Shown here: positions 4,196-54,685 of the stretch, piece after piece
Layout: the number at the start of each line of letters is the position of its first letter
Position numbering within the stretch: the stretch's first letter is position 1
Origin: Echinarachnius parma
Taxonomy: Eukaryota > Echinodermata > Echinoidea > Clypeasteroida > Echinarachniidae
Direction: 5' to 3'
Assembly: GCA_037951105.1 (NCBI GenBank)
Contig: JBAMJV010008174.1
Span: forward strand, 1 to 64,000
Length of the DNA: 64,000 nucleotides
The notes under the pieces: generated by a model
The model's database searches: none
What the model was told of the DNA's origin: nothing
The model's input: only the letters and a program-made list of their open reading frames with translations
Position numbers and translations under genes: made by a program

Positions 4196-4435
4196 ATGTT
4201 GCGCTTTGTTTCCAGAATTGGCAAAGTGGCAGGAGCCACCAGCAGACACCAGACGGGAGCTCACGAAACACTGGCCCGCTATCCGCGGCGGAACTTGACA
4301 GCAGAGTCCGGCCTGAATGCGAGCGCCACGGCCAGCTCACCCAGCGCTGGCGATGGCAATGCTGGTATGATGATGGGAACGCAAGACATAATTTACACGG
4401 AGGAGCATATGAATATGAGGGCAGCTTTGAAGAAA
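4196..4435 (+). CDS. Acyl-CoA dehydrogenase exon 1 (leader and N-terminus)
   Basis: Eighty codons from the first ATG. They encode an arginine-rich leader, a low-complexity S/A/G/M linker (residues 38-62) and the start of the catalytic domain ([16 protein letters not shown]). The donor GTGAGT follows at 4436. The linker is long compared with mammalian long-chain enzymes. Confidence 0.88.
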
Positions 4436-7400
4436 GTGAGTAGACTCTAGTCAATCATTTAGAAGAGAAAACCCATTTAAAGTTGCTTATTTATGACAAA
4501 CAAAGTCGGAACACACGACAAAAAATAAAGAAACATGAATAATTATTAATAACAAAAGTCAAAACAAAACTACTTTTAACTTTTACTTTTAGACGGCAGA
4601 CCTATTACTTAGTGATTCAGTTTTCCATATTATGAAAACAAGAAATAGTTACCATTATTGTTACTGTACTGAGCACTAATAATAACCATGATAACTAAGG
4701 AGTAAACTTTTTTTAAAATTTATTTATTTATTCTCCACTCATGGGATGGATTGCCCTTGTCAGCTACAAGCTGTTTTTCAAAGCCTTAAAGGTGTCCAGA
4801 TAGGTCCAAACTCGTCACTTACCACTGGAATATGGGGCTACTGTCCGTCTTACTAACCTAAGACTGAGTAAGTTGACTGCTCGCTAGAATATAGATCAAT
4901 AATAGGCAAATTTTTGGTGTAGAACTAGAAACGGTCATTCATAATTCCAATTCAGCATACATGCACAGTCAAACCTGTGTATAGTGACCACCGAAGGGAA
5001 GTAAGAAAAGTGTCCACCGTAGACAGGTGACCTCTACACGGGTTCATTCCATTGTTTTTCTCTGCAGGGGATCATGTAATGTTTAGTGGCCACTATAGGC
5101 AGGTTAGTTGCTATAAACAGGTGACCACTAAGACATGTTTGACTGTACTTTACTCAACTTGATCATTTTAAACCAATTTTAGGTTTCAAACTTTCAGACT
5201 TTCGGCATTCTCTACCAAAGCGTGCCCACGACTTGGCATGCATGACTAAAAGAACTAATGCTTTTATACAAATTGCATTGAGCATCAGTTCTTTTTGTCG
5301 TGCATGCCAAGTCGCGGGCACAATTAGGTGGAGAAAGCCTAGGTTTTTCCTAATGGCGCTCTACAACCACCTACAGAAACCCACAAAATTGCAATTTTGT
5401 GTGCACGATATTTTCGTGAAATATATATGATATATGATACTTACCATCTACTCCTTCACAAATATCTGATCTAACCTGCCGCTAGATGAAAATGATGATT
5501 TGTAGCTCATTTCCCATGTAAAATCCGTGATTTAGGCACCAGCCCGACCTCTGTCCGTGTCATAGCGAGACTTCGAATGGGTTTTCAACGAAAGCTTTGA
5601 TCGCGCTTTGGTCTCCATTCAAGATGCCCGATTCCGATTAAACGGCAGATCTGACGCATTAGTGTTTTTTTCCATACCACTAAACTCATCAGATCTGCCG
5701 TTTAATTGGAATCGGGCGACTTGAATGGTGACCAAAGCGCGATCATAGCTTTCTTTGAAAACCTGTTCGAAGTCTCGCTATGACACGGACAGAGGTCAGG
5801 CTGGGCTGGTGCCTAAATCACAGATTTTACATGGGAAATGATCTACAAATCATCATTTTTATCTAGCGGCAGGTTGATCTAACATATTTGTGAAGGAGTA
5901 GATGGTAAGTATCGTATCATTCACGAAAATATCGTGCACACAAAATTGCAATTTTGGGGGTTTCTGTAGGTGGTTGTAGAGCGCCAGCGCAAGCTCTGGC
6001 GCTCTGTAGAGTTAGGTTTCTCCTTACCTAAGTTAGTTTATTAATATATTTATAATTGTGATTTTTTAATTGACTTTTACTCATTATAAATATAATGTAT
6101 AAATATTGTTGACAGTTGATAGACAAGGAGATCAATCCGTATGTGGACCAGTGGGAGGAAGAGAAACAGTTTCCCGGTCACAAAGTCATGAAGATTCTTG
6201 GAGATGCAGGATTCCTTGGAATCAACAAACCCACAGGTCAGATTGGAGCACTTTGTCTTGTGTGTCACAGGTTGTGGATAGACAGTGCATGGTTGGCAAG
6301 GTTCAGAGCCTTGCCACCTGTGCATTGTCTATGTACTCTGTATCCCCTAAGGACATTTTGTGTATGTATGGTGTGTAAATGGTCATCCATGAATACGGAC
6401 ATTACTATTCCCTTTGTGAGAAGCAGGCGATGCATCTATAGATAGTGCATGTGTGGTGTCTGATAATTGACTACCAACACAGTATGCAGTTAACCGAGCT
6501 TGACTTGCAGGGGTGCTGTGCCACAAGGAAATTGTGTGAATGGCTTGTGTTGTAAATGGTCATACAACCTTGTATGACCATTTCAATTGTAGCTGTGGGT
6601 TGGAGGAAAACATACTGCAGGGCTTGACACTAGTTAGCACTTGCCCGATAGCCAAGGGCCAGTAGAATGATGTAGAGAATACAGTAAATGTTAAAATGGC
6701 AGTGGTCCGATCAGGCAACTTACTTTTTAAACTTACTAATAGAATCAGAAAATGCTTATTCTGTCAACGTCAAGCAGTTTACATAATTGCCGTTTTAGTC
6801 AATAAAGTGGGAAGGGGCAATTTTTAATAATAGATAGTTCATAGTTCATATATTATAATAATACAATTTTGGGGCCAGTAAATTTATTTATTTTTTAATA
6901 AAAAAATTACAGAAATTTAATTTACATGCCTGACCCCAAAAAAATGACACGTAACCATGATAACCATCATTCATTACTCATTATTCATCATTGTTATATG
7001 TTGTACATAGAGTATGGAGGACTTGGATTGGACTACACGTTCAACGTTGCCATGGCAGAGGAGCTTGGTGGAGTCCGATGTGGGGCAATTCCAATGGCCG
7101 TCGGTGTGCAGTCAGATATGGCCACGCCAGCTCTTGCAAGGTATAGTATAGTGTTCAGTGGCAAGACACCTGCATGTATGTATAATATTCTGATGTGTGT
7201 CATAGACAGCGCATAGACAATGCATGGCTGATGATCAATGATCGATGTACACTGTACGACTAGGAAATGAATGTAATGAATTTGTAATGTAGTCCCATAT
7301 TGTCAATTTTGTCAATTTTAGATGATGTGGCCCAGAATTAAACACAATATATTTTAGTTGCTACCTAGGGTTAACTTAGTGGGAACCTTAGAAGGCTAAA

Positions 7401-10400
7401 CCAGTTGATTGACCCTAGTTGGGGACTAGGAAACTGTTTGTTGCTACCAGAATTGTATTATTTGAAATGGACTTTATGAATGGTTTTATGAATATGGGGC
7501 CTGGTTACTGTGATGGTTTCTGAATACAGACTTGATCTCTAATTTACTCATCCTTGAATCTTTGACTTGTTCTTGAGCTCCATAAGGACTTTCAGACTCT
7601 ATGCATCAAGCTGGCATGTATAGTAATTGCGTATTATGAAAATGTAAATTTTGAATAAATGAACAACTGACTTAAGTTTTGCATTAATTTGTGTCTTGTA
7701 TTATGGGTGTCTACGTGTGAAGGATCTTCTCTATCAGTCCAAAACAATCGAGTTACTATCATGTAAGATAAATGGGGATCAAAGTCCATATTTTGGAGGC
7801 TAGATTGTATTAAACAAGTACTTGAATATTAGTGGCCTTCACATACACTGTACTACAACAGAAATATGGCATAAAACTGCTGAAATTTGTGCTTACTGTT
7901 ACTGATAAGCTCATAATTCCTGTCACTTCTGTCGTATACATTCCTCTTCTAAGGTATAACTAATAATGGAAATAATCAATGTTTTTTAAACCACCACTAT
8001 CAACTGTTTTGAGTGACCACAGGAGGCTGCCATGATTTCCAACGGTACCGCATGAAACGTCATCTGAGCACATCTGAGCGTGCACTAACAAAAACTGTTT
8101 GTGTAACCGCTGTTTTTTAATCTGCTGCTATGTCAGTGGTTATGTAACCCGCTTTTGTTAGTGCAAATCGAATGACATTTCATATGGTACAGTTGAAAAA
8201 CATGGCAGCCTCCAGTTATTATTAGTGATACCCAAGAGGAAATAAACGACTAGAAGTAACAAGAATATGCACTTAACAGACCTGTATCAGTAACAGTAAG
8301 CAAAAATGCCAGTGATTGGCTCCCCTTTGATCTACAGAACTTTGTTATTAGCTAAAAACTTGTTGTATTGCTTGTTGCACATCCCAGCAAAGTTACTAGA
8401 TCCCTTTAATTAATTTTTAGTAGTCCATACTGTCAAAAAGTGCAGAAAACAGATTTCCAGAAAATGTGATCAGAATTTGAAAACTCATTGTTCTAGAACT
8501 ATTTCTTGTGTTAATGGGTCTGAGGGGAAAGAATAAATACTGTCTGGGAAACATAAGTGGTGGCTATTTATGCTCCTGTGACAAGTTTTTTTTTTGCCCC
8601 TAAAATAGCAGGATATGGAAGCACAGACGTGTATTTAGATCCATTTATATGGCCGTCTAAACAGACAAATATTTTCCTTCACACTGGATTATAAAGATCC
8701 CAATATTTGTTTTTTACTTTATTTCCGATTCTCTTTTTCCCCCCCATGCAGGTTTGGTTCGGATGAACTTAGGCGAGAGTTCCTTGCCCCCGCCATTGCA
8801 GGGGACGTGGTGGCTTGTATTGGGGTCAGTGAACCTGGTGCTGGATCAGATGTGGCAGGTAAGACAAATGTTTCAAGTTTTTAAGTTTCAAGTTTATTGA
8901 TCTTTATTTCATAACACACATTACAAATATAACATCAATATCAAAGTTTTTTTCTGTGCAGGGATCATATTTGGTGCCCGCAAAAAATAGACAGGTTGAC
9001 TGTATTTATAATTTGTTCCTTTTTGTTTTAAAAATATCTAAAATCACTATTTATAGGTATCAAGACGAAAGCAGAGAAGAAAGGGGACGACTATGTTATC
9101 AACGGCAGCAAGTTCTGGATCACCAACGGGCATCAGGCTGACTGGATATGCCTGCTGGCTAACACAGGGGAGGGACCAGTCCACCAGAACAAGTCACTTA
9201 TCGTCGTACCCCTCAACTCAAAAGGTAGGTAGAGATTTAAGGTATAGTGAAATCCCGGCTTTGATTCGGCTTTATAGATTTGAATATGTGCCTATATTGA
9301 TATAACACACTCTTTTTTTTCCAAAGAAATCCTTAAAAATTGGACAAAAAAGGTAAATTTCATGCAACTTTTTGGCTTTTTTTCGCATCAGCATTCTATA
9401 CTCGCGTAACGCGCGTGTGTGTACGTGCCCATCGGGATCATGACGTCGCATGAAGACCACAACACGGAGTCCAAAGTTCTCGTGCATGGTTTACATGCAG
9501 AGCCTTTGACTTGCTAGTAAAACAAACTCGTATTTACTTGGAAATTGAGGCTTAACTGAAAATGCCTAAGAAATGCATTGTAGCAAATATTTGCAAATAT
9601 TGAAAAAAATCGAAACAATATCTCTCTGTCAACGTGAGTATTGCACTCAGCGTGTACGTCTATGACAATATAGTACCAAGCTATACTGAGATTGTCATTA
9701 TGTGACGTCACAAAGATGACGTCATTTTTCTTCGCCCTGACTCAATTTTTTTACGGGGGTTCCTAAAGTGAATTTTCAAGTTGATTTTTTAATTTTACCG
9801 GGTTTTCCCACGAGGAAAATATGTTTTTATTAGTAATCTTCATGAAAATCTACCTTAGATAGAGTAAAACACAATTTTGAGGTAGTTTTCTTGTCGGTAT
9901 ACCTTTAAGTCAATACAATCTTGTGGTTGTTGTTGTTGTAGTTAATAATGCTACTCGTATCATATTGATTCTTAGATTGATAACAAATAGTGTAGCTCAC
10001 GTGAAAGGAAGATTGCTAACTAGAATCGTTGGTACATTAATTTTTGTATGATCATGTGCTACTGTTAGAGGATGAATGTGTCCTGCAGAGCAACCTTAAA
10101 TGCTTGATTGATTGACTACTTTATAAAGACAGATGCTTTTAGATAAATTGATGACTTATACTGCTGGGCAAGGTTCATATATATATTCCCCCCCCCCCCC
10201 TCCCTGTGGCTTATTTGGGCTAGTATAATTTAGACTTTCCAAAAATTGATGTATTTGCCACCCTCCCAAATAAAGGGAATCCTCCAAAATTATCATATAG
10301 CAGTTGTACACCAGTTGTAACCAATACTAATTTATTTGGGGTGGTGACATGATTATATGATTGCTTGGATAATTTTAGGATAATAAGGTCAGTTTTTGTC

Positions 10401-13394
10401 GAGCCCACCGTAGGTGGAGGGAGACTAAGGGATCCAAAATGCGTCTGTCGGTCCGTCGGTCCGTCTGTCCGTGACGCTTACACAAATTTGAATAACTTTC
10501 CTACCCTGCATCTGTTTGTAACCAAACTTGGTTGGTAGATGCCCTACATTGACCTCCATGATATGCTGGGGTCAAAGGTCACATAAGTAGGTCAAAGGTT
10601 AAATGAGGTAAAATGTGAAAGTTTTGGGGTAAGTGTCTATTAGGGTTGATAACTTTCCAACCCTGCATCTATTTGTAACCAGACTTGATTGGTAGATGCC
10701 CTACATTGACCTCCATGATATGCTGGGGTCAAAGGTCATATAATTAGGTCAAAGGTCAAATGTGAAAGTTTTGGGGTAAGTGTCTATTAGGGTTGATAAC
10801 TTTCCAACCCTGCATCTGTTTGTAACCAAACTCAATTGGTAGATGCCCTATATTGGCCTCCATGATATTCTGGGGTCAAAGGTCACATATGTAGGTCAAA
10901 GGTCAAATGAGGTCAAATTTGAAAGTTTACCTGCAAGACTCTATAATGGTTGATAACTTTCCAACCCTGCATCTGTTTCTAACCAAACTTGATTGGCATG
11001 AATGCGCGCAATTGGGCGAGACACATTACGGCTATCACCTTGTTATTGATTGCATTTTTACAAATGTTTGAATGATTTGATTATCAGGTGTGACGAGGGG
11101 GAAGAAGATCAGTAAGCTTGGCATGCATGCATCGGACACGGCAGAGCTGTTCTTTGAGGATGTCCGCGTTCCACAGAGCAACCTGATTGGTGATGAAGGA
11201 GCAGGCTTCTTCTACCAGATGCTGCAGTTTCAGGAGGAGAGGCTGTTTGCTGCTGCTGTGGGTAAGTGACAAATGTATTGATACTTTGATTGGTTAGTTT
11301 GTTAATTCATGTGATTTATTTATTTATTGAACCATTGATTGATTGCTTGCTGTGGTCTAGTGGTGTTGGTGAGTCACGGGTACCCGGGTCTCGCCAAAAA
11401 ATGTTGAGTCCCAGGCGCAAAAATCAATACTCGATATCCCGAAAAAAAAGCAAAATTCCCCTCTTTGAACGCCATCATTCAAGTGACAAAAATGCAGCGC
11501 ATTTATGACAATAAATCATCTTCTAAAATACAGCAAATTCGTAAATCAATTATAGTTTTTAGCATTTCTGACATCATTTTAATGGAATTATGGTAACATG
11601 CTGTTCAAATTTACCTCGATTACGAAATTTCTGACGAAAATAGGACAACGTTATAAATGACCTCGGTGGCCGATCGTTTCTTCAACACACTTCGGCGAAT
11701 TTGCGCCACTATTTTTTGCTCTTTTCTGCCAACGAGCGTCATTCGTTTACAAGTCACTTGCCGATTATCATTGTGTACATGCAATGAATCGATGACTCTG
11801 ATACAATTTCATTTCCCATTCGTATTATGTAGTTCAACTTCATGTGCAAGCGCAGCAGCGAAAAATGTGTACACGTATGCGTTTTTCGCTGCTGCGCTTG
11901 CACATGAAGTATACGAATGAAAAATTAAATTGTATTGGAGTCATTGATTCATTGCAGGTACACAATGATAATCGGCAAGTGACTTGTAAACGAATGACGC
12001 TCGTTGGCAGAAAATAGCCAAAAATAGTGGCGCAATGCCTATGACAATCAAAGTGTGTTGAAGAAATGATCGGCCACCGAGGTCATTTATGTCCTATTTT
12101 CGTCAGAAATTTTGTAATCAAGGTAAATTTGAACAGCATGTTACCATAATTCCGTTAAAATCATGTCAGAAATGCTAAAACTATAATTGATTTACGAATT
12201 TGCTGTATTTTAGAAGATGATTTATTGTCATAAATGCGCTGCATTTTTGTCACTTGAATGAACATGTTTTCCCAGCGGCGTGACATGCCGATAGCGAAAT
12301 CAACAAATGGGTAAGTTTCGGGTACCCGTGACTCGCCCGAAAAATTATCGCGAGTCCCGGGAGGTAAATACTCCCGTAATCAACACCCCTACTGTGGTCT
12401 GATGATAGTATGCTTTAGCTAGTGGATAAATTTATTGATTATACTAATAATTGGATAAATGATTTATGGGTGGACTGATTGATAATTATATTTTGAGTGA
12501 TCAAACGCTTTGTTTTTTTTCCAATATTTGAGAAACTATTGAGTTATCAAAAAAAGATGAAACTCTTAACATTCAGTTGTGCATTGAGGCCCACATATTT
12601 GTGGTTTGGTAGTCCTACACTTTAACAAGAAGAAGACTAGTTATGTGAAGTGTACAAGAAGAAAGAGCATAAATTTCTCTATTAGAGCCCTATTTTGTTA
12701 CTCTACCTGCTTTAGTTATTTTTTAATGATTTTTTATTATTGCGTAAATCGCTATAATTTAGAAAAATCCTTAAATTGGCAACACATTGTGATATTTTAA
12801 AAACAGATATTGGCATTCAAATTGGCAACTTTGCGGCAAAGTCACTACATATTTGTCAAAAATTATAACTACTAAATATTTTCCACCTATTTTATGTCAT
12901 TTATAGGTCGACAAAATTTAGGAGTTGCCAATTTGTAGAGGAAAACAATGATCAATTTTGCCTTAAAATAGCTCTCGTCCTTGATGGGTTAAAAAAAACA
13001 GGTCAGCGTAAAGTCTTACCCCAAAGTTTTTGTTTTGTTACAGCGTTAATGCCAATGGACCTTATAATCGCTGATACCATTGACTACACAAAGCAGAGGA
13101 AGATCTTTGGGAAGCCTGTTCTTGACAACCAGGTTATTCACTACAGACTGGCAGAGCTGCAGACCGAGATTGAATGTCTCCGATCGCTGGTCTACAGAAC
13201 AACCGGTATGATGGTGATGATGATGGTGTTTTGGTTGATGATGATATTTTGGTTGATGATGATGATGGTGATGATGATGGTGATGATGATGATGTTTTGG
13301 TTGATGATGATGATGTTTTGGTTGATGATGATGATGGTAGTGGTGGTGGTGGTGGTGGTGGTGGTGGTGGTGGTGGTGGTGGTGGTGGTGGTGG

Positions 13395-13427
<33 letters not shown>

Positions 13428-16400
13428 GGATGAGGATGAGGATGAGGATGAGGATGAGGATGATGATGTGGTGATAATGATAATGATGATGATGTTAGTT
13501 ATGATGATACAATATAATATTGTTTCATAAATTATTGTTTTGTGCAGCTCTGTACGTCCAGGGTAATGACATGACCAAGCTGGCGTCGATGGCCAAACTG
13601 AAGAGTGGACGTCTAGCCCGGGAGGTGTCTGATTCCTGCCTGCAATACTTTGGTGGGATGGGCTTCACCAGCGAGATGTACGTCTCCAGGTGCTACCGGG
13701 ACATGAGGTAAGACAAGATTTAAAGTGCTAATGCTCTCTATTATCTCAAGTTCTATAGTCAAGCCCCTTGATACGTACATTACATTATCATTCTGATTTG
13801 TGTGGTAAAGCCTGCGTCACAAATCAAACGGACCCCGGCCGAATTTATAGATCGCCAGAGAGTCGCCGAATTTCAAATCTGCCAGGGAGTCGAGCGTATT
13901 TCTCAATTTCTCAAAAATTTTCTCAAAATTTCTGAATTTGGGAGCAGGTTTCGATCCCCTGCGAACGTCGGCCGACCCCTAAAAAACGCGGCGGAGCCCG
14001 CAGTGATCGAGCATACACTGGCCGTATTCCTGGCGAAAATGCCCTTTTGAGCTCGCAGAGAAGTCGGGCGGGCTCCGTCTTTGATTTGTGACGGCCCCTT
14101 AAGCAGTACAAGGACAATGCATGGTTGGTGTTCAATCATCACCTCCAATTACATGCATTGTCTATGTACTGTTGTACAGCCAGGAAATTTAATGTGGATT
14201 TATGGTCATAGGCTAGTACTAGAACCATTTACATGTACATGTACATGGTACATGTGGTCCAGCCTAGAGACCATGTGACCTTGTTTTTTGACATACATGT
14301 ATATATGTTTTTGATGATCTCTAGTCAATTCGAGGTTGCTGATTCCATATCCAATGGGTGCCACTCGCAAAACCTTTCAAGAGCATGTTTATTAAATTGC
14401 AGAAATCCAAAATCCTTCCATCATTGAAATCAAAGTCCATTGCAGTTTATTTAAATGTGAACAATATAAATATATGACAATATGTGCTGCACACATGCTT
14501 CCGATTAATAAAAGCTGCACATTCGCAACTCATGAATTTTTGTCTAAAGAATACATTTATGCAATGCATTTGGTGTGCAAAATATCAAAGTCAATAGCGC
14601 CATACGAGTAAAAAGCTATGAAGTAATTATCAGTAACTGGTAATTATGATATATATTTATGCATGTGCCCATCCCACTGAGAGAGTTTCAGTTTAGTGTT
14701 ATTCACTTTACATGGCCCTCTTCAAAAAGAAATCACAGTGCACTTAACTCTTTCTAACCATTTTTAAACCTCATTAATTTTCCCATTGTGTCATCATGTT
14801 TGTATTATTTGTTTACCTATAATGTGGATCTTTTCTCCATATGTGTTTACATGTACATCCATTTTATTCCTAAATCATGTTCAACAAATGCTATACCAGT
14901 AATTCTCACTTCTGCTTATTGGCAACAAAAAAATGTTTAAAAGAGGACACAATATCAAAAGTTTCATGCTCCAATTTCATAAAAATAGATGTCTTAAATA
15001 TCTATCAATTAGAAGGAGCAGAACGTTTTGCTTTCATGTTTTTCTTTATATTTTATGTAAGTTTGTCTCATGTTACATGACAACAAATGACAAAAAAAAA
15101 AAAAATTTGTCTGCAGTCATTTTTTTCTGTATACAGTCAAACTTGTTATAGTGGCCACCTGTCTATAACAGCCAACTTGCCTATAGTGGTCACCTGTCTA
15201 TAACAGCCAACCTGCCTAAAGTGGCCACCTGTCTAAAGCAGCCAACCTGCCTGTAGTGGCCACCAAAAGTGATCCCATGAAGAGATAAAACAGTGCTAAA
15301 AAAAACCCTCTATAGATAGATATAACCTGTCCACACTGGCCACTTTTCTTGCTTTCCTTATAAGGGTGTTCACTATACACAGGTTTGGCGGTAATTTGTT
15401 GATCTAACATTGTAATTAATTTCCACCCTAAGGTTACTGTCCATCGGAGGTGGAGCTGACGAGGTCATGTTAGCCATTCTGTGCAAGTACATGGGTACCC
15501 TGCCGAAAGGCACCGGGCTCATATAATCACAACATGTAAGAGAATTTACTTTAATCCTTGCACCAGCACTAGGGCTTTGTAGAGCTCAGCTGGTAGAGCA
15601 CTGTTCTAACAATCTAGAGGTCTCTGGTTCAAATCACAAATCAATTTTTCTTTTTTTTCTTTGCTCTTTCCACTAATACTTGCACCAGCACTATGACTTT
15701 GTAGAGCTTAGCTGGTAGAGCACCGGTCTAGCAATCTAAAGGCCTCTGGTTCAAATAGCCCCAGAGAAATCCTATTTTCTTTGCACATTTTGATTAATAC
15801 TAATGCATGCATGGTTTTAACCTGTTTAGGACTATTCCCTTAATGGGAACCCTGCCAAAAGGCACCCAGCTATAATACAAAAATGTGAGAGAATTTACTT
15901 TAATACTTGCATGCACGGTAATAACCCATTCAGGACTGCATGGTCTCTAAATGTTAAATAGTTTTATACATCGAATGGGCAAATGTCCATGCACATTAAC
16001 ACCACCAACAAGTGTATTTTCATGTGGGACTAAGCATTTTAAGTCAGAATTTTTGAATAACTCTTATCTTAACACATTTTCTTTTGTTTTCATTTGTATT
16101 ATTTGGTACAAATTGTACAGTGGATATAATATGTCATTATCTACTAAAGCTCAAGTTCTCTTGACTCGTGTATCGATCACCATATCTTGAAGAATCATTT
16201 TGCAAACTGTTGATCACTATACTGCCGTACTTTGGCATCTAGGCATTTTGTGGACTCATATATATCAATATTGACATTTTTATACTAATTGAAAGAACTC
16301 ATCAGTGCAGCTTTTTCATTTGATAAAAAATTTGCAATATTTGGTATAATTATGCTCAATTCATTTTTTGCTTACCCATGAAAATGAATACATATTTTTC

Positions 16401-17998
16401 ACTTCAAAAGCCATTCAATTGCCAGCTAGAGCCGGTCACATATATTTACCTCCCAAATTATTGTCCATTAACTTTGTGGATGTTGTGAACTGACTTGACC
16501 TTTTTTGTGGTAAATATGTGCTGTGAACAAAAGTTTTATATAATGATTCTTCAAACTGTATAAACATGGAATTAATGCAGATAAACTCTCATGCTAATCC
16601 CATGGCTCTATAACACTACACACACCATGGCATCCAAACATTGCTTTAACCAGTTGAGGACTAGTCAGGACTATAATAATGACTTTAATAGCACTAGTAT
16701 ATTTAAAGTATTTACAGATTTAATTTTACACTTTGATATTTGCTGCTCTAGTTGAAATCTTACATGATTAATCTGCTTAAACTTCACCCTTTGTGTGAAG
16801 CATTCTAGTTTTACATTCTCTTTTTGTGTGAAGAAAACAAATGTTAAAGGGATAGTTGAGTTTTGGTAGAGAGGGCGCTACACATAATAATTTTTTTGTG
16901 AGATAATGAAAAACTGAGTGTAAAATTTGAAAGAGCATAATATTTTAGTGACAGAATAAACTTTATTTGATCAAAATCGGTTCAGAAACAGCTGAAATAT
17001 CCATAAACGTAACCATTTGTAATAAATGTGGGGCCCCACAAATATTAGCTAATTTTGAACCAACCGTTACAAATTTTAAAAAAATGATTCCTCTTTTCAA
17101 AAATGTTCAAAAGAAGTTTTGTAATAGTTGTTGATTATCTCTCACTAATCACTATTTTTACGAACCTTCACATGCACAATATTTCATTTAAAATGGTTTA
17201 AACCGATGTGTTTTTAGAGAGCGCCATCTTGAGTTTGAATGCCTCTGTTTGAATGATAAAAGGCTTTTTACTCAGTTGTTTGTGATTTTGAATTCCTTTC
17301 AAGCATGGTAGAGTTATAACTATTAGTTTGTAATGTAATGGTGCAGGTTTTGGTTACTAAAATTCAGTTTGACCAAAACTGTACTCTCTTTACCAGAACT
17401 CAACTATCCCTTTAAGCTTTGCTGCCCCCATTTGCTTTGTTTTGTATTTGCATGAAACTAATTTAGTTGTATCTTTTCCCTTTGTATATATAAAACCTTC
17501 AAATAATTCAATTTGTCTGGTATTAATTTGAATATTTTATTTTATTTGAGTATTTTATTTGAATACCCTTTGTCTGTGAGTTATTTTATAGTTATTGTGT
17601 TGCCCTTGGCCTTGGACCTTTGTGGTCGATTGCTTGCAGATTGTTTGAACATTTCACGCAACTTGGACTCTCCATCTGTAGGAATATAGTTTTGTTTGAC
17701 ATTTGTTAAATTGTGTAAAAGCGTGTTCATTAAGAGGCTTGGAACTTTGTATTTGCATGAAAATATAATAAGTATAAAAAATTGAACAAATATTGTCTTG
17801 GTTTAAATAGACTGCATTTAATATTATTATATCATTAGTTTTATTTTTTTATTTTTTGTGAAACATTCTAGTTTTAATGATTTGATCCTTGACCTTTGAC
17901 CTTGCAGACTGGGGTCGATTGCCGGAGGAGCCGACGAGGTGATGCTTGCCATCCTCTCCAAGCTGATGGGTACCATGCCAGGCAAGTCCAGGAAGTGA
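4196..17998 (+). CDS. Mitochondrial long-chain-type acyl-CoA dehydrogenase, alternative last exons
   Basis: This is an FAD-dependent acyl-CoA dehydrogenase, which makes the trans-2-enoyl-CoA in mitochondrial beta-oxidation and passes electrons to ETF. Coding exons are 4196-4435, 6116-6236, 7011-7140, 8752-8858, 9057-9224, 11088-11261, 13044-13205 and 13548-13707, then either 15433-15526 or 17908-17998. All junctions use GT/AG and keep phase, giving 451 or 450 aa. The first 40 residues ([10 protein letters not shown]..., rich in R, S and A, with no early acidic residue) look like a mitochondrial leader. Visible family motifs are EPGAGSD (about residues 191-197), WITN (220-223) and QFQEERL (302-308). 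Glu306 aligns with the helix-G catalytic base of long-chain acyl-CoA and isovaleryl-CoA dehydrogenases. The C-terminus has the SIGGGADE form seen in invertebrate 'acyl-CoA dehydrogenase 6' proteins. The family is near certain; substrate length is not. Confidence 0.93.
4965..5147. mobile_element. MITE, ACAGTCAAACCTGT family, copy 1
   Basis: It opens with ACAGTCAAACCTGTGTATAG and closes with its complement CATGTTTGACTGTA. The interior repeats words such as AGTGGCCAC and AGACAGGTGACC. The TA-bounded ends suit a Tc1/mariner-type MITE. Related copies lie at 15132, 20641, 20909, 27673 and 58701. Confidence 0.7.
5221..5325. repeat. Short inverted repeat in intron 1
   Basis: CGTGCCCACGACTTGGCATG at the left pairs with CATGCCAAGTCGCGGGCAC at the right across about 45 bases. 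It sits directly beside the larger fold-back at 5355-5985 and may be a separate insertion. Confidence 0.55.
5355..5985. mobile_element. Long fold-back element in intron 1
   Basis: Two arms of about 310 bases are near-perfect complements around a centre at about 5670. The left end is GGCGCTCTACAACCACCTAC and the right end is its complement. It has no coding capacity. Arm mismatches are few, so the element or its arms were recently homogenised. Confidence 0.8.
6116..6236 (+). CDS. Acyl-CoA dehydrogenase exon 2
   Basis: It starts after TTGACAG and reads [20 protein letters not shown], then the [13 protein letters not shown] segment typical of the N-terminal helical domain. It ends in phase 1 before GTCAGA. 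Confidence 0.93.
6276..6350 (+). repeat. Small GACAATGCATGG hairpin repeat (dispersed family)
   Basis: A hairpin with arms like GACAGTGCATGGTTGGCAAG and TGCATTGTCTATGTAC. Related pieces lie at about 7204-7265, 14112-14190 and 48885-48985, each followed by an AGGAAAT-like tail. This is a small dispersed repeat family present in introns of both genes. Confidence 0.5.
7011..7140 (+). CDS. Acyl-CoA dehydrogenase exon 3
   Basis: It reads [20 protein letters not shown] and continues through the [11 protein letters not shown] segment of the N-terminal alpha domain. The acceptor is TACATAG and the donor is GTATAG, giving phase 1 in and phase 2 out. Confidence 0.93.
7861..8330. mobile_element. Inverted-repeat element in intron 3
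   Basis: The ends (CTGAAATTTGTGCTTACTGT and the complement of CAGTAAGCAAAAATGCCAG) are inverted. The core contains an inner hairpin (GAGGCTGCCATG... and CATGGCAGCCTCC). The core matches the element at 21401-21836 (for example AATAATCAATGTT). Confidence 0.6.
8752..8858 (+). CDS. Acyl-CoA dehydrogenase exon 4 (EPGAGSD motif)
   Basis: A strong polypyrimidine acceptor (TTTTTCCCCCCCATGCAG) precedes it. It encodes the start of the beta domain, including [13 protein letters not shown], the acyl-CoA dehydrogenase signature that contacts the flavin and substrate. The donor is GTAAGA. Confidence 0.95.
9057..9224 (+). CDS. Acyl-CoA dehydrogenase exon 5 (WITN motif)
   Basis: It encodes the beta-barrel segment [20 protein letters not shown] followed by WITNG, which contacts the flavin ring. 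It ends with the sheet [11 protein letters not shown]. The donor is GTAGGT. Confidence 0.95.
9237..9908. mobile_element. TTAA-bounded element in intron 5
   Basis: It begins TTAAGGTATAG and ends with the complement of TTAAAGGTATACC, with TTAA at both ends, which suggests a piggyBac-type MITE. The interior has no transposase. It carries two CRE-like TGACGTCA palindromes at 9703-9710 and 9717-9724. Confidence 0.5.
10390..11035 (+). repeat. Tandem repeat of about 150 bases, rich in AGGTCAAAGGTCA
   Basis: About four units spaced 148-158 bases apart each contain AACTTTCCAACCCTGCATCT, GGTAGATGCCCTACATTGAC and GGGGTCAAAGGTCA. The array starts after GGTCCGTCGGTCCGTCTGTC and ends with GGGCGAGACACATTACGGC. 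It occupies intron 5 just before exon 6. A similar design recurs at 46940-47550. Confidence 0.8.
11088..11261 (+). CDS. Acyl-CoA dehydrogenase exon 6 (catalytic glutamate)
   Basis: It covers the end of the beta domain ([20 protein letters not shown]) and helix G with [11 protein letters not shown]. The Glu before Arg (about residue 306) aligns with the catalytic base of the long-chain type. The acceptor is TTATCAG and the donor is GTAAGT. Confidence 0.95.
11358..12391. mobile_element. Non-autonomous hAT fold-back element with intact 8-bp target duplication
   Basis: The ends are TAGTGGTGTTG and the complement of TAGGGGTGTTG. CTGTGGTC is duplicated exactly on both sides (11350-11357 and 12392-12399), the 8 bases expected of hAT. 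Long inner arms pair around a centre near 11875. There is no transposase. It lies in intron 6. Confidence 0.85.
13044..13205 (+). CDS. Acyl-CoA dehydrogenase exon 7
   Basis: It encodes [20 protein letters not shown], then [20 protein letters not shown]. The [11 protein letters not shown] segment is a flavin-binding signature of the C-terminal helical domain. Its donor GTATGA runs straight into a GAT/GGT microsatellite. Confidence 0.95.
13206..13500. repeat. GAT/GGT trinucleotide microsatellite filling intron 7
   Basis: Nearly the whole 342-base intron is made of GATGAT and TGG/GGT trinucleotide runs, then GATGAG repeats. Open frames in all three + frames result (poly-Met/Val, poly-Asp/Gly). 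They are artefacts of the repeat, although one continues the exon 7 frame. Confidence 0.9.
13548..13707 (+). CDS. Acyl-CoA dehydrogenase exon 8
   Basis: It encodes [20 protein letters not shown] and the [20 protein letters not shown] segment, equivalent to the HGGWGY region of the C-terminal domain. It ends in phase 2 (AG of an arginine codon), which either last exon can complete. Confidence 0.95.
13808..14102. mobile_element. GC-rich inverted-repeat element in intron 8
   Basis: The termini GCGTCACAAATCAAACGGAC and the complement of CCGTCTTTGATTTGTGACGG are inverted. The interior is CpG-rich unlike its surroundings. No target duplication could be fixed. Confidence 0.6.
15132..15393. mobile_element. 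MITE, ACAGTCAAACCTGT family, copy 2
   Basis: It begins TACAGTCAAACTTGTTATAG and ends ACACAGGTTTGGCGGTA. The interior repeats AGTGGCCACCTGTCTAT-like units four times. It ends only about 40 bases before the acceptor of last exon A. Confidence 0.65.
15433..15526 (+). CDS. Alternative last exon A of the acyl-CoA dehydrogenase
   Basis: It completes the arginine codon and encodes 30 more residues beginning [20 protein letters not shown], ending GTGLI before [11 protein letters not shown] replaces the glutamate-bearing loop of medium-chain enzymes, as expected for the long-chain type. The acceptor is CACCCTAAG. Its closest relative in the window is exon B 2.4 kb downstream, and part of it is copied at about 15845-15911. 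Confidence 0.9.
15556..15775 (+). repeat. Two tandem tRNA-like units after last exon A
   Basis: Two copies about 119 bases apart each carry a box-A-like AGCTCAGCTGGTAGAGCA (AGCTTAGCTGGTAGAGCA in the second) and a box-B-like GGTTCAAAT. Shared flanking words (TTGCACCAGCACT) show that they arose by tandem duplication. The anticodon arm is degenerate and extra bases break the acceptor stem. They are tRNA-derived repeat heads or tRNA pseudogenes, not working tRNAs. Confidence 0.6.
15845..15911 (+). pseudogene. Partial decayed copy of last exon A and its 3' flank
   Basis: The bases GGGAACCCTGCCAAAAGGCA, followed by a GTGAGAGAATTTACTTTAAT-like tail, match the end of exon A and its 3' untranslated flank (15493-15566) with about a dozen changes. 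The reading frame is lost. It is a leftover of a segmental tandem duplication that also took in the tRNA-like units. Confidence 0.65.
16844..17415. mobile_element. TTAA-bounded MITE (AGGGATAGT family), copy 1
   Basis: It begins TTAAAGGGATAGTTGAGTTT and ends AACTCAACTATCCCTTTAA, with TTAA duplicated. Relatives occur at 37060-37507 and 42080-42385, both in the decarboxylase gene. The TTAA target suits piggyBac-type mobilisation. It lies between the two alternative last exons. Confidence 0.8.
17890..17902 (-). promoter_or_regulatory. Perfect DR1 motif next to the last exon B acceptor
   Basis: TGACCTTTGACCT is the exact complement of AGGTCAAAGGTCA, the DR1 consensus for RXR heterodimers and HNF4-type receptors. 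It forms the polypyrimidine side of the acceptor whose AG is at 17906-17907. Any regulatory role is inference. Confidence 0.4.
17908..17998 (+). CDS. Alternative last exon B of the acyl-CoA dehydrogenase
   Basis: It completes the same arginine codon as exon A and adds 29 residues beginning [20 protein letters not shown], ending GKSRK before TGA. Exon A and B proteins differ in the loop (SIGGGADE versus SIAGGADE) and in a basic tail. The intact frame, exact phase and functional acceptor argue that it is used. AATAAA at 18303-18308 could end its transcript. Confidence 0.85.
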
Positions 17999-18835
17999 AT
18001 GTACTGGGCCCTAAGCATGGGCATACGGGCACAGTTATTTCTCGGGCGGGCCGGGGTCATTTACCCCTGGAAATATCCATCTTCAAACTGTTCCCTTTGA
18101 GATTGTGAAATCTCCATACACTTTGTACGTAGCACACCAGTTTCCCATAGGCAAGGGGTTAATATCATAGGCATACAGGCACATTATTTATCTTCTTTTT
18201 TTCTGGGGAGTTGAGGTAATTTACCTGAAAAAGAGCCTTCTCTATAATCTTTTTATAATATCTTTGATATCAAAATTTTTCTTGACAAATGCTTATTTTG
18301 CAAATAAAATGGTTGGGGCTGATGAAGCTTAAAATTAGCGGATATTTTGCCCCAAATGTGGTTGTTTGTGATATTGTTACGTCAAGATTATTAGGGACTG
18401 CAGCTCCCTATAATCCCCCTGCCTTGTACACCCTATTTGTTTCATAACACTTTTTAAAAAACTGCCTTGTACAATTATGTGCCTAAAAAGATTAAAAATT
18501 GATTAAAATTTTTCTCTGGTGGCCCGGTTGGGCCAGTAGAATCAAGACATTCTCATTTTAGCGGTAAACCATTTCCCCAAATAGACAGAAAAAAGGGTTT
18601 AAACATTGGGTTATTTAGCAGCCCTGTTTGGTAAGTAACATTTGACATTTGTGAAATGTTTGTGGCTCAGAGCTCCCTTGAATAGTGGCCCTGGGGCCAG
18701 CAGGCGAGTACTAATTTTGTGCCCCGATTTAACGGTAGTCAAAATCTGCATAACTTTACTTGGAACTCTAGCAGTTCTTACGCATCACTCGGTGGATATA
18801 TCGGATCACTGAAATACACATTTTTATCAACCGTT

Positions 18836-18980
18836 TGTTAGTTTTTGCATACATGTATATGTCAACAAAGATCCTAATTAGCTTGGTGCACCTATAGGGT
18901 TGCCCGTTGTTAGTTTTTGCATACATGTATATGTCAACAAAGTTCCTAATTAGCTTGGTGCACCTATAGGGTTGCCCGCC
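18836..18980 (+). repeat. Two-copy 72-bp tandem duplication
   Basis: A 72-base unit containing TAGTTTTTGCATACATGTAT and CCTAATTAGCTTGGTGCACC occurs twice in a row, with one clear difference (AAAGAT versus AAAGTT). The near identity implies a recent event. Confidence 0.85.
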
Positions 18981-19349
18981 GCTAGTATGCTCCCCGGGGA
19001 GTTGAGAATGTGTACAAGATAATTATGCGGGTCTGAACTGTACCAAATGACCAGGGATAATGATATGCGCTTTGAGCACCTTAATTATTAGCTGGATATT
19101 GCGCAGTATAAATATTCAATATTATTATTATTATTATTATTATTATATTCCTTTAATGGTAAACTTGTAATGGTTTTTGCAAGTACTGATTTTTAACTGT
19201 ACAGGACAAACCAAAAACTAATCAGACTTGTTTTAAAAACGTAGGAAAAAGTAGATTTTTAATTAAGTTCATAATTCTATTTAATCCCAGTTAGATTACA
19301 AGAATGTTATGAATTACTTCTGGTGCAAATTTGTATACTCATAACATCT

Positions 19350-19720
19350 TTAATAAAGGGATGCCTGTAAAGTGTCTAACTCTGCGAAAATTACTTGGAG
19401 GTTCCTCGTTTCTCTTCTACCGTGTTGTTTAGCTTATGGTAAGAGAAGAATAAAATAGGGTTAGATTTTTTCAAATGCCCTTTTAGTATGATGATATCTA
19501 TTATTCAGCTCAAAAGCGTTAACCAACGGTCATAAACCTCATAAACGTCCGTTGTAAAAGCTGACGCATATTTTCGCTTTTTTAACCAGGAAAGCAGTGT
19601 TCTTTTTCAATGAAACTTTCACACATCATTCGGACATATCTTACAATGATTTTGGTACAGGATTGAAGTGTCAAATGTCATTTTGGGCAATATCTGACAC
19701 TTTACAGGCCTCACTTTAAT
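19350..19720. mobile_element. Inverted-repeat element
   Basis: GGGATGCCTGTAAAGTGTCT near the left end pairs with the complement of TGACACTTTACAGGCCTCAC near the right end. The interior is non-coding. Confidence 0.55.
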
Positions 19721-20118
19721 GTGATGTTGAAAGTCGGTTGAGAAAATAACCTTTTGGTGTCTGCTTGAAAACAAATTGCCCTGAATGGGTTAAAGGGTCA
19801 TAATATTTTACAACAAATTTGGATCATTATTGTCATAAATAATACATGGATATCATGTATTTAAGGTAAGATACTGGTATATAGGTTTTGCTTTTTGCTT
19901 TTTTTAATGAAGAGATATTCAAATAATGTTAACATTTTAATTGTCAACGTTTTACATGGCTAGGTCAGGGAATAAAGGTACAGAGACCAGATCTGCATGT
20001 AAGTCTAATTATCTGCCATTATGTCTGGTGCAATAATTGAGTGGGACATTTTTTATGACTGTACATTTTAATATCTTCAATGATATACATAATTATCTAA
20101 GATGGTGAAATTAAGATT

Positions 20119-28047: not shown

Positions 28048-31000
28048 CTTCAGAGTGTTGAGGGGGGGGGGGAGGGAATACAGAAAGAGAGATTAGGAAT
28101 TTTCAATGAGCTGGTAAAAAACTTTACAGCTGGGGGGTGTTTCACAAAGATCCTAAGTTGAACTTAACTCTAAGTTGGACTTAAAAAGTATGGTAAGCCA
28201 TTTGTAGCCTTGGAACAAAATATACTAAAACGCAAAAATGCAAGTATTTTAGACTTTTCATAAAGTTTACATTTAGAACATGAAATCTCTTTGATAATAG
28301 AAACATATTTATGAATTGAAACAACATTTAATGCCTTTTTAAAAGGACTTTTAGAATTTTTTTCAAAGAAACTAATGGCTTTCCATACTTTTTAAGTCCA
28401 ACTTAGAGATAAGATCAACTTAGGATCTTTGTGAAACACCCCCCTGGTGTTCTTCTTTTGCAGGCATCTTCAAGTTCAGTAAAACATTCCATAAACCGCA
28501 AGGATACTGCAAATATCAAGTTGGCAAAATTTGACAGTGATAACAGATTCAAATGGATTCGATACTATGGACCATTGTATATTAATTCGTAAATTAAAAA
28601 CATATGGAGTTAGAGGAACTGTACTTTCTTGGTTTGAAGATTATTTGCGTAATAGACAACAATATGTTATTTTTAAATCTAAAAAATCTAATATTTCCAC
28701 TGTGAAGTGCGGAGTACCACAAAGCTCTATTTTAGGTCCCTTTAATATTGTTTTTAATATATATGAATGATATTGTAAATGCATCACCACTCCTAACATA
28801 CGTTTTGTTCGCAGATGATACTAACGTATTTTATTCACACACAGACTTAAACATTCTTATTACAACCCTCAATCTAGAATTAAATAAACTATCATCTTGG
28901 TTCAAATCCAATAAACTCTCTCTAAATATTAATAAAACAAATTGTATGTATTTTAAAAATATACACTCTAAATATGCACCTTATTTTAATATTTTAATAA
29001 ATGATATGCCCATAATTGAAAAAGAAGTTACTACATTTTTAGGTGTAATGATTGATTCAAACTTAACTTGGAATAGTCATATTAATAACATTTGTATGTT
29101 AGTCTCGAGAGGCATAGGCATTCTATATAAATTAAAATATTGTCTTTCACAAAAGTCACTATTTATGCTTTATAATTCTCTCATTTTGTCACATATATCT
29201 TATTGTAATATTGTATGGGGGAATAGTAATAAGATGAAAATTATGTTAATGTATCGTCTTCAAAAGAAAGCACTCCGCATTTGTACACATTCATATTATA
29301 TAGCCCATACTGATCCAATATTTTATGAACTAAACACATTACAAATTGCTGATATTCACATTTTTCAAACTGCAATCTTTATGTATAAATTTTGGATAAA
29401 TACTATACCATTAGCATTTCGAAATATTTTTGTGTACAATAGTAGTATACACTCATATCCTACACGACACTCATCCGACTTCCATTTAACTAACCCAAAA
29501 ATTATTATGGCCTATAAATCAATAAGACACCATGGTCCAGACATTTGGAATGCTTTACCTGACAAAATTAAACACTCTGCATCTCTTTATTCATTTAAAG
29601 CTTCGATGAAAAAATATTTAATATCCAAATATTCATAAACATAATCAGGGTCTAAAGTATTGTAATTGTTTCTTTATATTGACTAATTTTAAGATAACCA
29701 GTTCATAAAAATAAAAAAATCAAACACTTATTGCACATGCACTCACCCACATGCACACACTTGCATTTTTTTTTGTTTTTCTTTTTATATATTTCTTTTT
29801 TTTCCAGATACTTTCTGAAAAATCACTTGTGCGTGACACTCTATTTTATTATATACTCCAATAACAGCGCCATGTACCCCCTCCCCTCCTGGCTGCTATC
29901 GACTCAAGCATTCATGCTTATGATAGTTTACCCCTGCATTTATTTTGATTATTTGCATTACATTCAACTGATTTAAGTTCTGAATTATATATATATATAT
30001 GTATTTTCTTTTGATATCAAATGTCACATTTTATGTAATTCAATTATGTTATACACTTGTATTGTTATTTGAATATGTTGATTTTGATTTTTCTTTAATA
30101 AATGCAGAAAAACATCTAAAAAAAAAAAAAAAAAAAAAAAAAAATGCTTCGAGCAAAAACAGGCTCACACTTTCCATTTTGAATCTTCATGTATGTAGCA
30201 TGTATTATTTGTATCCTTTTACCAAGTTAAAGGATATAACCCTGTAACATGTACATCACAAATCAAACTGAATCACAATTGTAGTGCTTAATCAGAATAA
30301 AACTTAACGTGAGGTGTGTGATCAAGACTAATGCAATATAACAAACATGGAATAACGCATTTACATCTAAATTCAGATACACACTATAAGTTCCTTATTA
30401 ATGTCAAACTTTTCTAATTATCTATTAAAGGCTCTTGTTATTACCTTGCTCAAGCGACTCCAGAACTCTGGTGTCCTTTCTTGATTCCTGAGGCATTCTG
30501 GCAAATACCAGAAACTGACGTTGGTGCATTGGGGCTGAAAATGGAGAGACAGAAACGGATGAACAATCTTAAAGGAATCTAGTAACACTGTTCACATAAT
30601 TATGCAAAGGATCTATATAATGTGTATTTCTGTGATCCCGTATGTCCATCCAGTGATGTGTGAAAAATCCATGCTAAATGGATGTTATATGGCCGAGTAA
30701 AGAGCAGAAATGCAAAGTGGCAAAGTGATATTTGCTACTAACTCATTACCATAACTTTGTACACAGTTGACACACTCCAAGGAAGACTTTCAAATAAAAA
30801 AATTACGTTCATACCTCAATCTCTATAACGAAACATAAATTCATAAAACCGAAACCTGGTCCATGTTTCTATTGGTTATACAAAAACAACCAGGCAACTG
30901 ACAATCACTAGTTTTATAAGTAAGTTTAGATGATTTTGACAATGTAACTAAATCTGTTTAATTAGAAGTCATGCTATAGTATACCTATGTAAACAAATGC

Positions 31001-53586: not shown

Positions 53587-54685
53587 AAAAGTGGCAGAGT
53601 GGTCTTGAAGAGAAGGGAAAACCGGGGTTAATGGATAAAAAAAAGGTTAATTAGAACTAGAAGGCAAGAAGCCCTTTTTTGTTGATTTTAGGGGTGGACT
53701 AAGTAAAGTAAGACAGGTAAGCAATTGATAAAATCTTCCTAAAATCCTCTGACGAAATAAACTAAAATCATAATGAGACTGAGTTTATTTTGTCCGAATA
53801 AATCTAAAAACCATGCAGACGAAATAAACTGCATGAATAATTGAATTCATTATGATCGGAGAGTGGCACGAATTATTATGCGTGTCGTCGGCCAGCCATG
53901 AGAGTGAGACGGTCTAAAAAAATCAGACTACGTCAGACTGTGAAAACGGGACAAGATCCAGGGAAAATCGGATGCCAGGGGTTTAGGTCCCCGGTGGACT
54001 AAAGTAAGAGAATGCCTATATCATCATAGAGAATGTAGCTTATATTAATGGAGAATGAGGCTTAAAGAAACTGACAGCAAGTTATTACCAGCTGGGAGGC
54101 GAAAGCTCAGCCTGAGCTTCAGGTCAAGAAACTGAATCGATGTTGGCAATGCATGCAACCACTGTTTGAACAGGCACTTCTTGGCAATCATAATAGCCGA
54201 GAACTCCGGCTCAGGTACATCCCGGCAAGAGCCCAGTCCCAGGCAGGCAGCCGACAGTCAGTGGTTCGGCCACTAATTGGGCTAATAATCTGATCTGGAA
54301 AGCTCTATGTAAATTGTCATTTCGCTCATTAAATATCAACACTTGTCACGCTGATTCACCACACCAGAAATCAAGAAATGCAAAGTCATGCTATTATTGC
54401 TATCCATCTTGATTCTTGTCTCTTGAGGAAGTTTTGTAAATCAGCTGATTGTCACGATGACAAGATAGTCTGTTGGCGAGGCGGTTTGATGTTGCACTGA
54501 AATTGTTTTCCGATCAATTTGATGGACTAAAAATGTCTATTTAATCAAAATAATCGTATTCATGCTCTCTGGACTCAGAAGTTACGTGCAAACTGGTTTT
54601 GAATTTATTTAAACAAAGCTTTAAAAAATATTAACTCGTCATTAATTATTGCTACAGAACATTAATCACATAAAAGCCTGTTACG
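53587..54685. other. Stretch with one exon-like segment
   Basis: Mostly unrecognised AT-rich DNA. Bases 54067-54270 are GC-richer and look coding on the - strand (EFSAIMIAKKCLFKQWLHAL, then a G/GTAATAAC donor near 54090). The + strand is also open here. The - strand frame would join the decarboxylase exon at 50707 in phase, but I recognise no protein family in either frame. Confidence 0.3.

What the first reader, a model, noticed from the sequence alone, without database searches (positions are those of the whole stretch)
15433..17998. Duplicated, mutually exclusive last exons in an acyl-CoA dehydrogenase gene
Two last exons 2.4 kb apart encode the same C-terminal helix region. Both keep the phase that completes an arginine codon, and both have an intact frame and their own stop. 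They differ at the flavin/substrate loop (SIGGGADE versus SIAGGADE) and in the tail (GTGLI versus basic GKSRK). This would give two enzyme isoforms from one gene by choice of acceptor and poly-A site.
Basis: partly seen in the sequence, partly recalled or inferred. Interest (0 to 1): 0.75.

Follow-up and report, generated by a model that had tools for sequence, protein, structure and literature searches.

The report
Sea-urchin enzyme gene, two last exons
A gene for a fat-burning type of enzyme, probably from a sea urchin, carries two alternative final exons that would give two versions of the enzyme differing near the substrate pocket and in the tail; the duplicated exon and signs of selection on it are in the DNA, but use of both in RNA is unproven.

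Summary
A gene of the 'probable acyl-CoA dehydrogenase 6' type (coding exons 1-8, 4196-13707) is followed by two homologous last exons: A (15433-15526) and B (17908-17998). Both complete the same arginine codon (AG|G, AG|A), keep the frame and have their own stop. No second copy of exons 1-8 was found in the 64 kb. A and B differ at 21 of 72 aligned bases, 12 at third positions; dS 1.8 (near saturation), dN 0.17; 5 of 24 residues differ. Flanking introns no longer align. Neutral decay of one copy fits poorly (P 0.0003-0.0026). The window falls in a clade with sea-urchin proteins. Two Lytechinus pictus entries agree at all 54 residues before this junction and differ at 7 of 24 after it; in 231 control pairs the most is 4. 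Last exons thus look exchangeable in other sea urchins, through isoforms or paralogous genes. Two of the five differences fall in or beside the acyl pocket of LCAD and IVD; the predicted catalytic glutamate is in a shared exon. I judge these to be alternative last exons giving two isoforms. Use in RNA could not be tested. The kind is known; my searches found no earlier case in this gene family.

The parts
4196..4435 (+). exon 1, coding part, of the ACAD6-type gene (first ATG, N-terminal leader)
   Evidence: reading frame and donor site; tblastn
6116..6236 (+). exon 2
7011..7140 (+). exon 3
8752..8858 (+). exon 4
9057..9224 (+). exon 5
11088..11261 (+). exon 6, carries the glutamate (QEERLF) aligned with the catalytic Glu291 of human LCAD
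   Evidence: PMC11153573 abstract and passages
13044..13205 (+). exon 7
13548..13707 (+). exon 8, the shared donor exon; ends AG, first two bases of an arginine codon
15433..15526 (+). last exon A, coding part: (R)[30 protein letters not shown] stop; acceptor AAG
17908..17998 (+). last exon B, coding part: (R)[29 protein letters not shown] stop; acceptor CAG
16955..16960 (+). first AATAAA after exon A (second at 17021); both lie inside the insert 16838-17421
18303..18308 (+). first AATAAA after exon B
15843..15911 (+). partial repeat of the end of exon A and its first 3' bases (85-86% identical), without the 5' part of the exon and its acceptor

Best explanation
This is one acyl-CoA dehydrogenase 6 (ACAD6-type) gene, most likely of a sea urchin, in which the last coding exon was duplicated long ago. 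Shown: two tandem last exons with the same phase, intact frames, own stops, and a mark of purifying selection. Inferred: the exon-8 donor is joined either to A (then cleavage and polyadenylation before B) or, when A is skipped, to B. The upstream acceptor is AAG, the only one of its kind in this gene, and the downstream one CAG; that AAG is the less favoured class is recalled, and would let both be used. The two enzymes share exons 1-8, so the leader, most of the enzyme and the predicted catalytic glutamate are the same. They differ in the loop before the final helix at one position that lines the acyl pocket in relatives and one beside it (Leu and Gly in A, Gly and Ala in B), in three places of the final helix region, and in the C-terminal tail (GTGLI or basic GKSRK). 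Exon choice would therefore tune substrate fit and the tail. I put the alternative-last-exon reading at 0.7 and pocket tuning as its purpose at about 0.4.
For: Gene model and frames. No second copy of exons 1-8 in 64 kb. 21 of 72 bases differ, by codon position 5, 4, 12; dS 1.81, dN 0.17. Simulations with one copy protein-conserved and the other neutral: P 0.0017 and 0.0012 (start A), 0.0003 and 0.0004 (start B) on 24 codons, 0.0026 and 0.0009 on 29 codons. Flanks: 30 bases before the exons 27% identical; in 900 bases only the coding piece scores below E 1. Third-position GC 20/30 (A), 23/29 (B), 254/420 (exons 1-8), against 32-38% GC in the three 2-kb windows from 14001 to 20000. Relatives: A is 22/24 identical to P0002. 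L. pictus P0003 against L. pictus P0241 and L. variegatus P0006: 0 of the last 54 residues before the junction differ, 7 of 24 after; in 231 control pairs with at least 93% identity over the preceding 120 residues the most is 4. Loop positions: alignment with LCAD, and passages of PMC11153573 and PMC12369846.
Against: No RNA read or cDNA of this animal was available. Exon A has an AAG acceptor (though its pyrimidine count, 12 of 17, equals that of B) and no AATAAA or ATTAAA for 1.43 kb. The tail GTGLI is absent from the 15 relatives whose tails I listed; the sea-urchin tails nearest to A stop at LPK. Exon B groups with no single class of relatives (17-19 of 24 to all six sea-urchin rows), so its orthology is open, and A and B share 'AIL', which fits a later duplication or conversion. 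P0241 (264 aa, partial) may be a separate gene rather than an isoform, so the Lytechinus pattern may reflect paralogues. The selection test rests on 24-29 codons and a simple mutation model; synonymous sites are near saturation.
Confidence: 0.7

Rival explanations
1. Exon B (or A) is a leftover copy that is no longer spliced; the gene makes one protein.
For: No RNA evidence. A has an AAG acceptor, and B has five residues (of 24) not seen in A or P0002. A partial third copy of the end of exon A shows that such pieces do arise and decay here.
Against: Both frames and both acceptors are intact at dS 1.8. With one copy conserved and the other neutral, so few amino-acid changes without a stop came up in 0.03-0.26% of simulations. 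Third-position GC of both copies is like the rest of the gene.
Confidence: 0.13
2. Exon B is the last exon of a second, tandem copy of the gene whose other exons lie elsewhere or were lost; it is not used by this gene.
For: Lytechinus pictus has two protein entries with 96% identical cores (P0003, P0241), so the gene may have been duplicated in some sea urchins.
Against: No convincing second match to any of exons 1-8 on either strand of the window. B follows 2.4 kb behind A on the same strand and in the same phase.
Confidence: 0.07
3. Both exons are used, but the choice has no enzymatic meaning: it is noise or a way of choosing a 3' UTR, and the protein differences are tolerated.
For: The change at loop position 5 is only Gly to Ala; position 2 is variable in the family (13 residues seen among 323 relatives), and in the LCAD model the contact at that place is through the main-chain carbonyl. 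No selector/docking type pairing found in a simple 9-mer search.
Against: Position 5 is Gly in 314 of 323 relatives and Ala in 9 (the motif used to find the place allowed only Gly or Ala there, and 4 of 327 proteins lacked the motif). In IVD and LCAD this position lines the acyl pocket.
Confidence: 0.1

Closest known systems
Tandem duplicated exon substitution events with C-terminal swap (human; PMC9741552, passages seen)
   Same: Homologous exons in tandem giving proteins alike except for one homologous piece; 77 of 236 human events swap the C-terminal region according to the passage.
   Different: Human cases are annotated from transcripts; here splicing is inferred. Terminal swaps there tend to be more solvent exposed; here the piece includes a loop at the substrate pocket.
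Mutually exclusive terminal exons of Drosophila pip, and the 3' variable region of PGRP-LC (PMC9013439, passages seen)
   Same: Tandem homologous terminal exons chosen one at a time.
   Different: pip is given there among UTR examples, with eight clusters; PGRP-LC is said to use competing RNA structures. No such pairing was seen here in a simple search.
Tropomyosin 3' exons (TPM1, Tm1, lev-11; PMC9741552, passage seen)
   Same: Duplicated 3' exons producing homologous C-termini.
   Different: Three tandem 3' exons in each of those genes; here two, in a metabolic enzyme.
Probable acyl-CoA dehydrogenase 6 of sea urchins (Lytechinus, Diadema) and other animals
   Same: 72-79% identical to the sea-urchin rows, same three Pfam domains.
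   Different: One tail per entry in those records; here two tails are seen in one locus.
Human LCAD and IVD
   Same: Catalytic glutamate at the helix-G position rather than in the last loop (LCAD: alignment, and PMC11153573 passages; IVD: PMC12369846 passages).
   Different: 32% identity in the structure matches of the relative P0004; no duplicated last exon was looked for in them.

Membership tests
Acyl-CoA dehydrogenase, ACAD6 type | N-terminal, middle and C-terminal ACAD domains | tested here: met
   PF02771, PF02770, PF00441 above cut-off in both isoforms
Acyl-CoA dehydrogenase, ACAD6 type | Nearest named relatives are probable acyl-CoA dehydrogenase 6 | tested here: met
   120 rows listed of 7997 and 120 of 7820; a tree of the core with 24 relatives places the window in a 7-row clade with four named sea-urchin rows and two unnamed rows, support 100/100
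Acyl-CoA dehydrogenase, ACAD6 type | Catalytic base present | tested here: met
   Glu in QEERLF (exon 6) aligned with LCAD chain Glu261 = Glu291 by my offset of 30 (PMC11153573). By alignment only
Acyl-CoA dehydrogenase, ACAD6 type | Dehydrogenase activity | not testable with these tools
   needs purified protein
Tandem-duplicated alternative last exons | Two homologous exons in tandem, same strand, behind the same gene body | tested here: met
Tandem-duplicated alternative last exons | Same entry phase, AG acceptor, intact frame, own stop | tested here: met
Tandem-duplicated alternative last exons | Coding constraint on both copies | tested here: met
   short exons and one simple model, so moderate power
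Tandem-duplicated alternative last exons | Own poly-A signal after each copy | tested here: inconclusive
   AATAAA 305 bases after the stop of B; for A the first is 1.43 kb away in an insert, only variant hexamers nearer
Tandem-duplicated alternative last exons | Either exon, not both, in mRNA | not testable with these tools
   no reads held
Tandem-duplicated alternative last exons | Both exons in the orthologous locus of related species | tested here: inconclusive
   only proteins of relatives were reachable; tails of about three kinds among six sea-urchin rows

The most novel reading that the evidence does not exclude
Sea urchins keep an old, exchangeable set of last exons in their ACAD6 genes, and by choosing among them remodel the acyl pocket of a mitochondrial beta-oxidation-type enzyme, so that one gene serves two substrate ranges according to tissue, stage or diet.
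Probability: 0.3. Interest if true: 0.62.

Novelty: new member of a known kind. Interest (0 to 1): 0.42.

Why it matters
If both exons are used, a core metabolic enzyme would be diversified by splicing at its substrate loop instead of by gene duplication. The step in divergence at this exon junction in Lytechinus suggests that the arrangement is wider than one species, which can be checked in existing sea-urchin genomes and RNA-seq. It is also a warning for orthologue alignments: last exons of sea-urchin ACAD6 gene models may not be orthologous to one another.

Tried and rejected
A first exon model had the borders of exons 5 and 7 one base off and broke the frame; corrected.

I first read L. 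pictus X1 (P0003) against L. variegatus (P0006) as two exons of one gene. One search showed a second L. pictus entry (P0241) that pairs with P0006, so separate genes are possible and the claim was weakened.

A clean sorting of the six sea-urchin tails into A-like and B-like was tried and dropped. P0002 and P0004 are A-like; P0005 mixes features; P0003 shares LGS, S-K and a basic tail with B but GGG with A; P0006 and P0241 share AGG and S-K with B but the second-position Leu and the LPK end with A.

A search of C-terminal fragments brought no entry named as a sea urchin among the 120 rows listed of 836. tRNA and Rfam searches of the window were empty. A search for RNA pairing that could link both acceptors to a common docking site found nothing at 9-mer level. 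The read-through line printed is in a wrong frame and was not used. Pfam on six other ORFs gave only retroelement domains, three of six ORFs with a hit.

Papers: search listings (one search found none). None of the titles and abstract starts listed points to alternative last exons in an ACAD gene; none of the papers listed in those three calls was opened. What I say from papers rests on passages of PMC9013439, PMC9741552, PMC11153573 and PMC12369846; no paper was read whole.

Full report
What is there. The left part of the window holds a gene on the + strand whose coding part looks complete. Reading frame and splice borders give exons 4196-4435, 6116-6236, 7011-7140, 8752-8858, 9057-9224, 11088-11261, 13044-13205 and 13548-13707. 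The last of these ends with AG, two thirds of an arginine codon. Two exons can complete it: A at 15433 (AG|G, 30 further residues, TAA 15524-15526) and B at 17908 (AG|A, 29 further residues, TGA 17996-17998). The isoforms are 451 and 450 aa. tblastn of both isoforms against the window finds each of exons 1-8 once and the last exon twice. The remaining hits have E 1.1 or worse; one of them (E 4.9) is the 10-residue piece at 15843-15872 that the repeat search also shows.

What gene. Pfam gives the three acyl-CoA dehydrogenase domains in both isoforms. Of 7997 relatives the best 120 were listed: apart from two odd rows (P0001, 695 aa, and P0007, 645 aa) the best are sea-urchin entries named 'probable acyl-CoA dehydrogenase 6' and unnamed 'lgn' rows, then sea stars and vertebrates. 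A tree of the core (first 421 residues of the window protein) with 24 relatives puts the window in a clade with Diadema, three Lytechinus rows of two species and the two unnamed rows P0002 and P0004 (7 rows, support 100/100), on a rather long branch of 0.45. I count P0002 and P0004 as sea urchins by that placement alone. So the host is most likely a sea urchin; the species is not known to me.

Is the duplication more than chance, and is it kept? The two exons match at E 3.8e-6 and 2.3e-6 in the window search. Over 24 codons 21 of 72 bases differ, at codon positions 1, 2, 3 in the numbers 5, 4, 12. Nei-Gojobori estimates are dS 1.81 (pS 0.68, near saturation) and dN 0.17; 5 of 24 residues differ. 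The introns beside the two exons no longer align: the 30 bases before the acceptors are 27% identical, and a blastn over 900 bases gives nothing below E 1 except the coding piece. Under neutrality from either start none of 20000 simulations gave so few changes without a stop. With one copy held constant in protein and the other neutral, the probability was 0.0017 and 0.0012 (start A) and 0.0003 and 0.0004 (start B) for 24 codons, and 0.0026 and 0.0009 for 29 codons including the tails. The simulations use one simple mutation model, and the exons are short. Third-position GC is 20/30 in A, 23/29 in B and 254/420 in exons 1-8, while the three 2-kb windows from 14001 to 20000 are 32-38% GC. Both copies therefore still behave like coding sequence.

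Other sea urchins. I compared the part before the junction with the first 24 residues after it. Lytechinus pictus P0003 and L. pictus P0241 differ at 10 of 239 core residues, at none of the last 54, and then at 7 of 24 residues after the junction (Fisher P 0.00023). P0003 and L. variegatus P0006 give 27 of 414, none of 54, and 7 of 24 (P 0.0012). Of 327 proteins fetched, 323 carry the junction motif; the 317 outside the six sea-urchin rows served as controls. Among their 231 pairs with at least 93% identity over the 120 residues before the junction, the largest number of tail differences is 4; among the 318 pairs at 90-93% it is 5. Of the 15 pairs among the six sea-urchin rows, nine have 92% identity or more; eight of these have 6 or 7 tail differences and the ninth (P0006, P0241) has 2. 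The other six pairs do not stand out: P0002 and P0004 have 88% and 3, and the five pairs with Diadema P0005 have 78-79% with 3 to 8, a range of identity below my control bands (in the 80-85% band up to 9 occur). Control pairs are not independent and include bacteria and unnamed rows. P0006 is labelled low quality by its source, but its tail agrees with that of P0241 at 22 of 24. The step at the junction is what one expects if gene models of related species picked different, paralogous last exons. It could also come from paralogous genes that each kept one exon, since P0241 (264 aa, partial) may be a separate gene. Exon A is of the class of P0002 (22 of 24) and P0004 (20 of 24). Exon B matches each of the six sea-urchin tails at only 17-19 of 24, so whether B is as old as the sea-urchin split is open; A and B also share 'AIL', which would fit a later duplication or conversion.

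What the exon encodes. In an AlphaFold model of the relative P0004 (pLDDT 83) the piece after the junction is the end of one helix, a short loop and the final helix; residues 411-414 of the loop have low confidence. In the alignment with human LCAD the junction loop reads RVQPIYGGTNEIM against [13 protein letters not shown]. The chain positions of that alignment plus an offset of 30 (my count; it also turns chain Glu261 into Glu291) make the two variable loop positions Gln408 and Tyr411 of LCAD. PMC11153573 (abstract and passages) gives Glu291, on helix G, as the catalytic base, and in a model of a bound sterol-CoA names contacts to the carbonyl of Gln408 and to the side chain of Tyr411. PMC12369846 (passages) says that Gly406 and Ala407 of IVD make room for branched chains where MCAD has Tyr400 and Glu401, and names Tyr403 and Ile405 beside them as common residues. 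On that spacing isoform A has Leu at the Tyr403 place and Gly-Gly at 406-407, isoform B Gly and Ala-Gly. The glutamate aligned with LCAD Glu291 lies in exon 6, so both isoforms should be catalytically equipped. Among 323 relatives position 5 is Gly in 314 and Ala in 9, though the motif used to find the place admitted only these two; position 2 is variable. The change at position 5 is thus at a strongly kept place, though small in itself. The tail differs too: GTGLI in A, GKSRK in B; the four sea stars and a hemichordate listed also end in basic tails.

How it would work. Splicing from 13707 to 15433 followed by cleavage before B gives form A; skipping A gives form B. The acceptor of A is AAG; the other eight of this gene, B included, are CAG or TAG. 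By recalled knowledge AAG is a weaker class, so the first acceptor could be left out often enough for the second; the pyrimidine counts of A and B are equal, 12 of 17. AATAAA lies 305 bases after the stop of B; after A the first AATAAA is at 16955, inside an insert with 36-base inverted ends (16838-17421), with only variant hexamers nearer. This makes poly-A usage after A the weakest part of the model. No pairing that would point to a selector/docking mechanism was found in a simple search. Regulation is thus inferred, not shown.

Known or new. Tandem-duplicated last exons are a known kind: PMC9741552 counts 77 C-terminal swaps among 236 human events, and PMC9013439 describes mutually exclusive terminal exons in Drosophila (passages). 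My searches for an ACAD case listed none that looked like one by title and abstract start, but the listed papers were not opened and most subscription papers are not held. I file this as a new member of a known kind, with an unusual target: a metabolic enzyme, at its substrate loop.

Noticed in passing
window 16838-17421: Insert between exons A and B with 36-base inverted ends (89% complementary) that contain TTAA on both sides, like a small transposon remnant; it holds the first two AATAAA signals after exon A.
   Followed up: partly
window 15545-15634 and 15667-15756: Two 90-base direct repeats (87% identical) behind exon A with tRNA-like promoter boxes (recalled motif), perhaps a tRNA-derived SINE; ARAGORN finds no tRNA.
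   Followed up: no
window 15843-15911: Partial copy of the end of exon A and its 3' flank, reading [10 protein letters not shown] then a stop, without acceptor.
   Followed up: partly
window 15133-15264: Three overlapping 62-base copies at 35-base spacing ending about 170 bases before exon A; a similar phrase is seen by eye near 4975-5130.
   Followed up: no
window 13206-13500: Long ATG/GTG trinucleotide repeats starting right behind the donor of exon 7, between exons 7 and 8 (by eye).
   Followed up: no
window about 5400-5960 and 11480-12260: Two large inverted-repeat elements in introns, seen by eye only.
   Followed up: no
window 28736-29638, 54674-55459, 61597-62016: Reverse transcriptase (the first only just above the cut-off) and RNase H pieces of retroelements (Pfam).
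   Followed up: partly
proteins P0003 and P0241 (Lytechinus pictus): Two ACAD6 entries with 96% identical cores and 71% identity in the 24 residues after the junction, so L. pictus may have two gene copies.
   Followed up: partly
protein P0001 (Chamberlinius hualienensis): 695-aa ACAD entry that scores 903 bits, far above what its 59% identity would suggest, with a further domain PF11794 listed; perhaps a fusion or tandem gene model.
   Followed up: no
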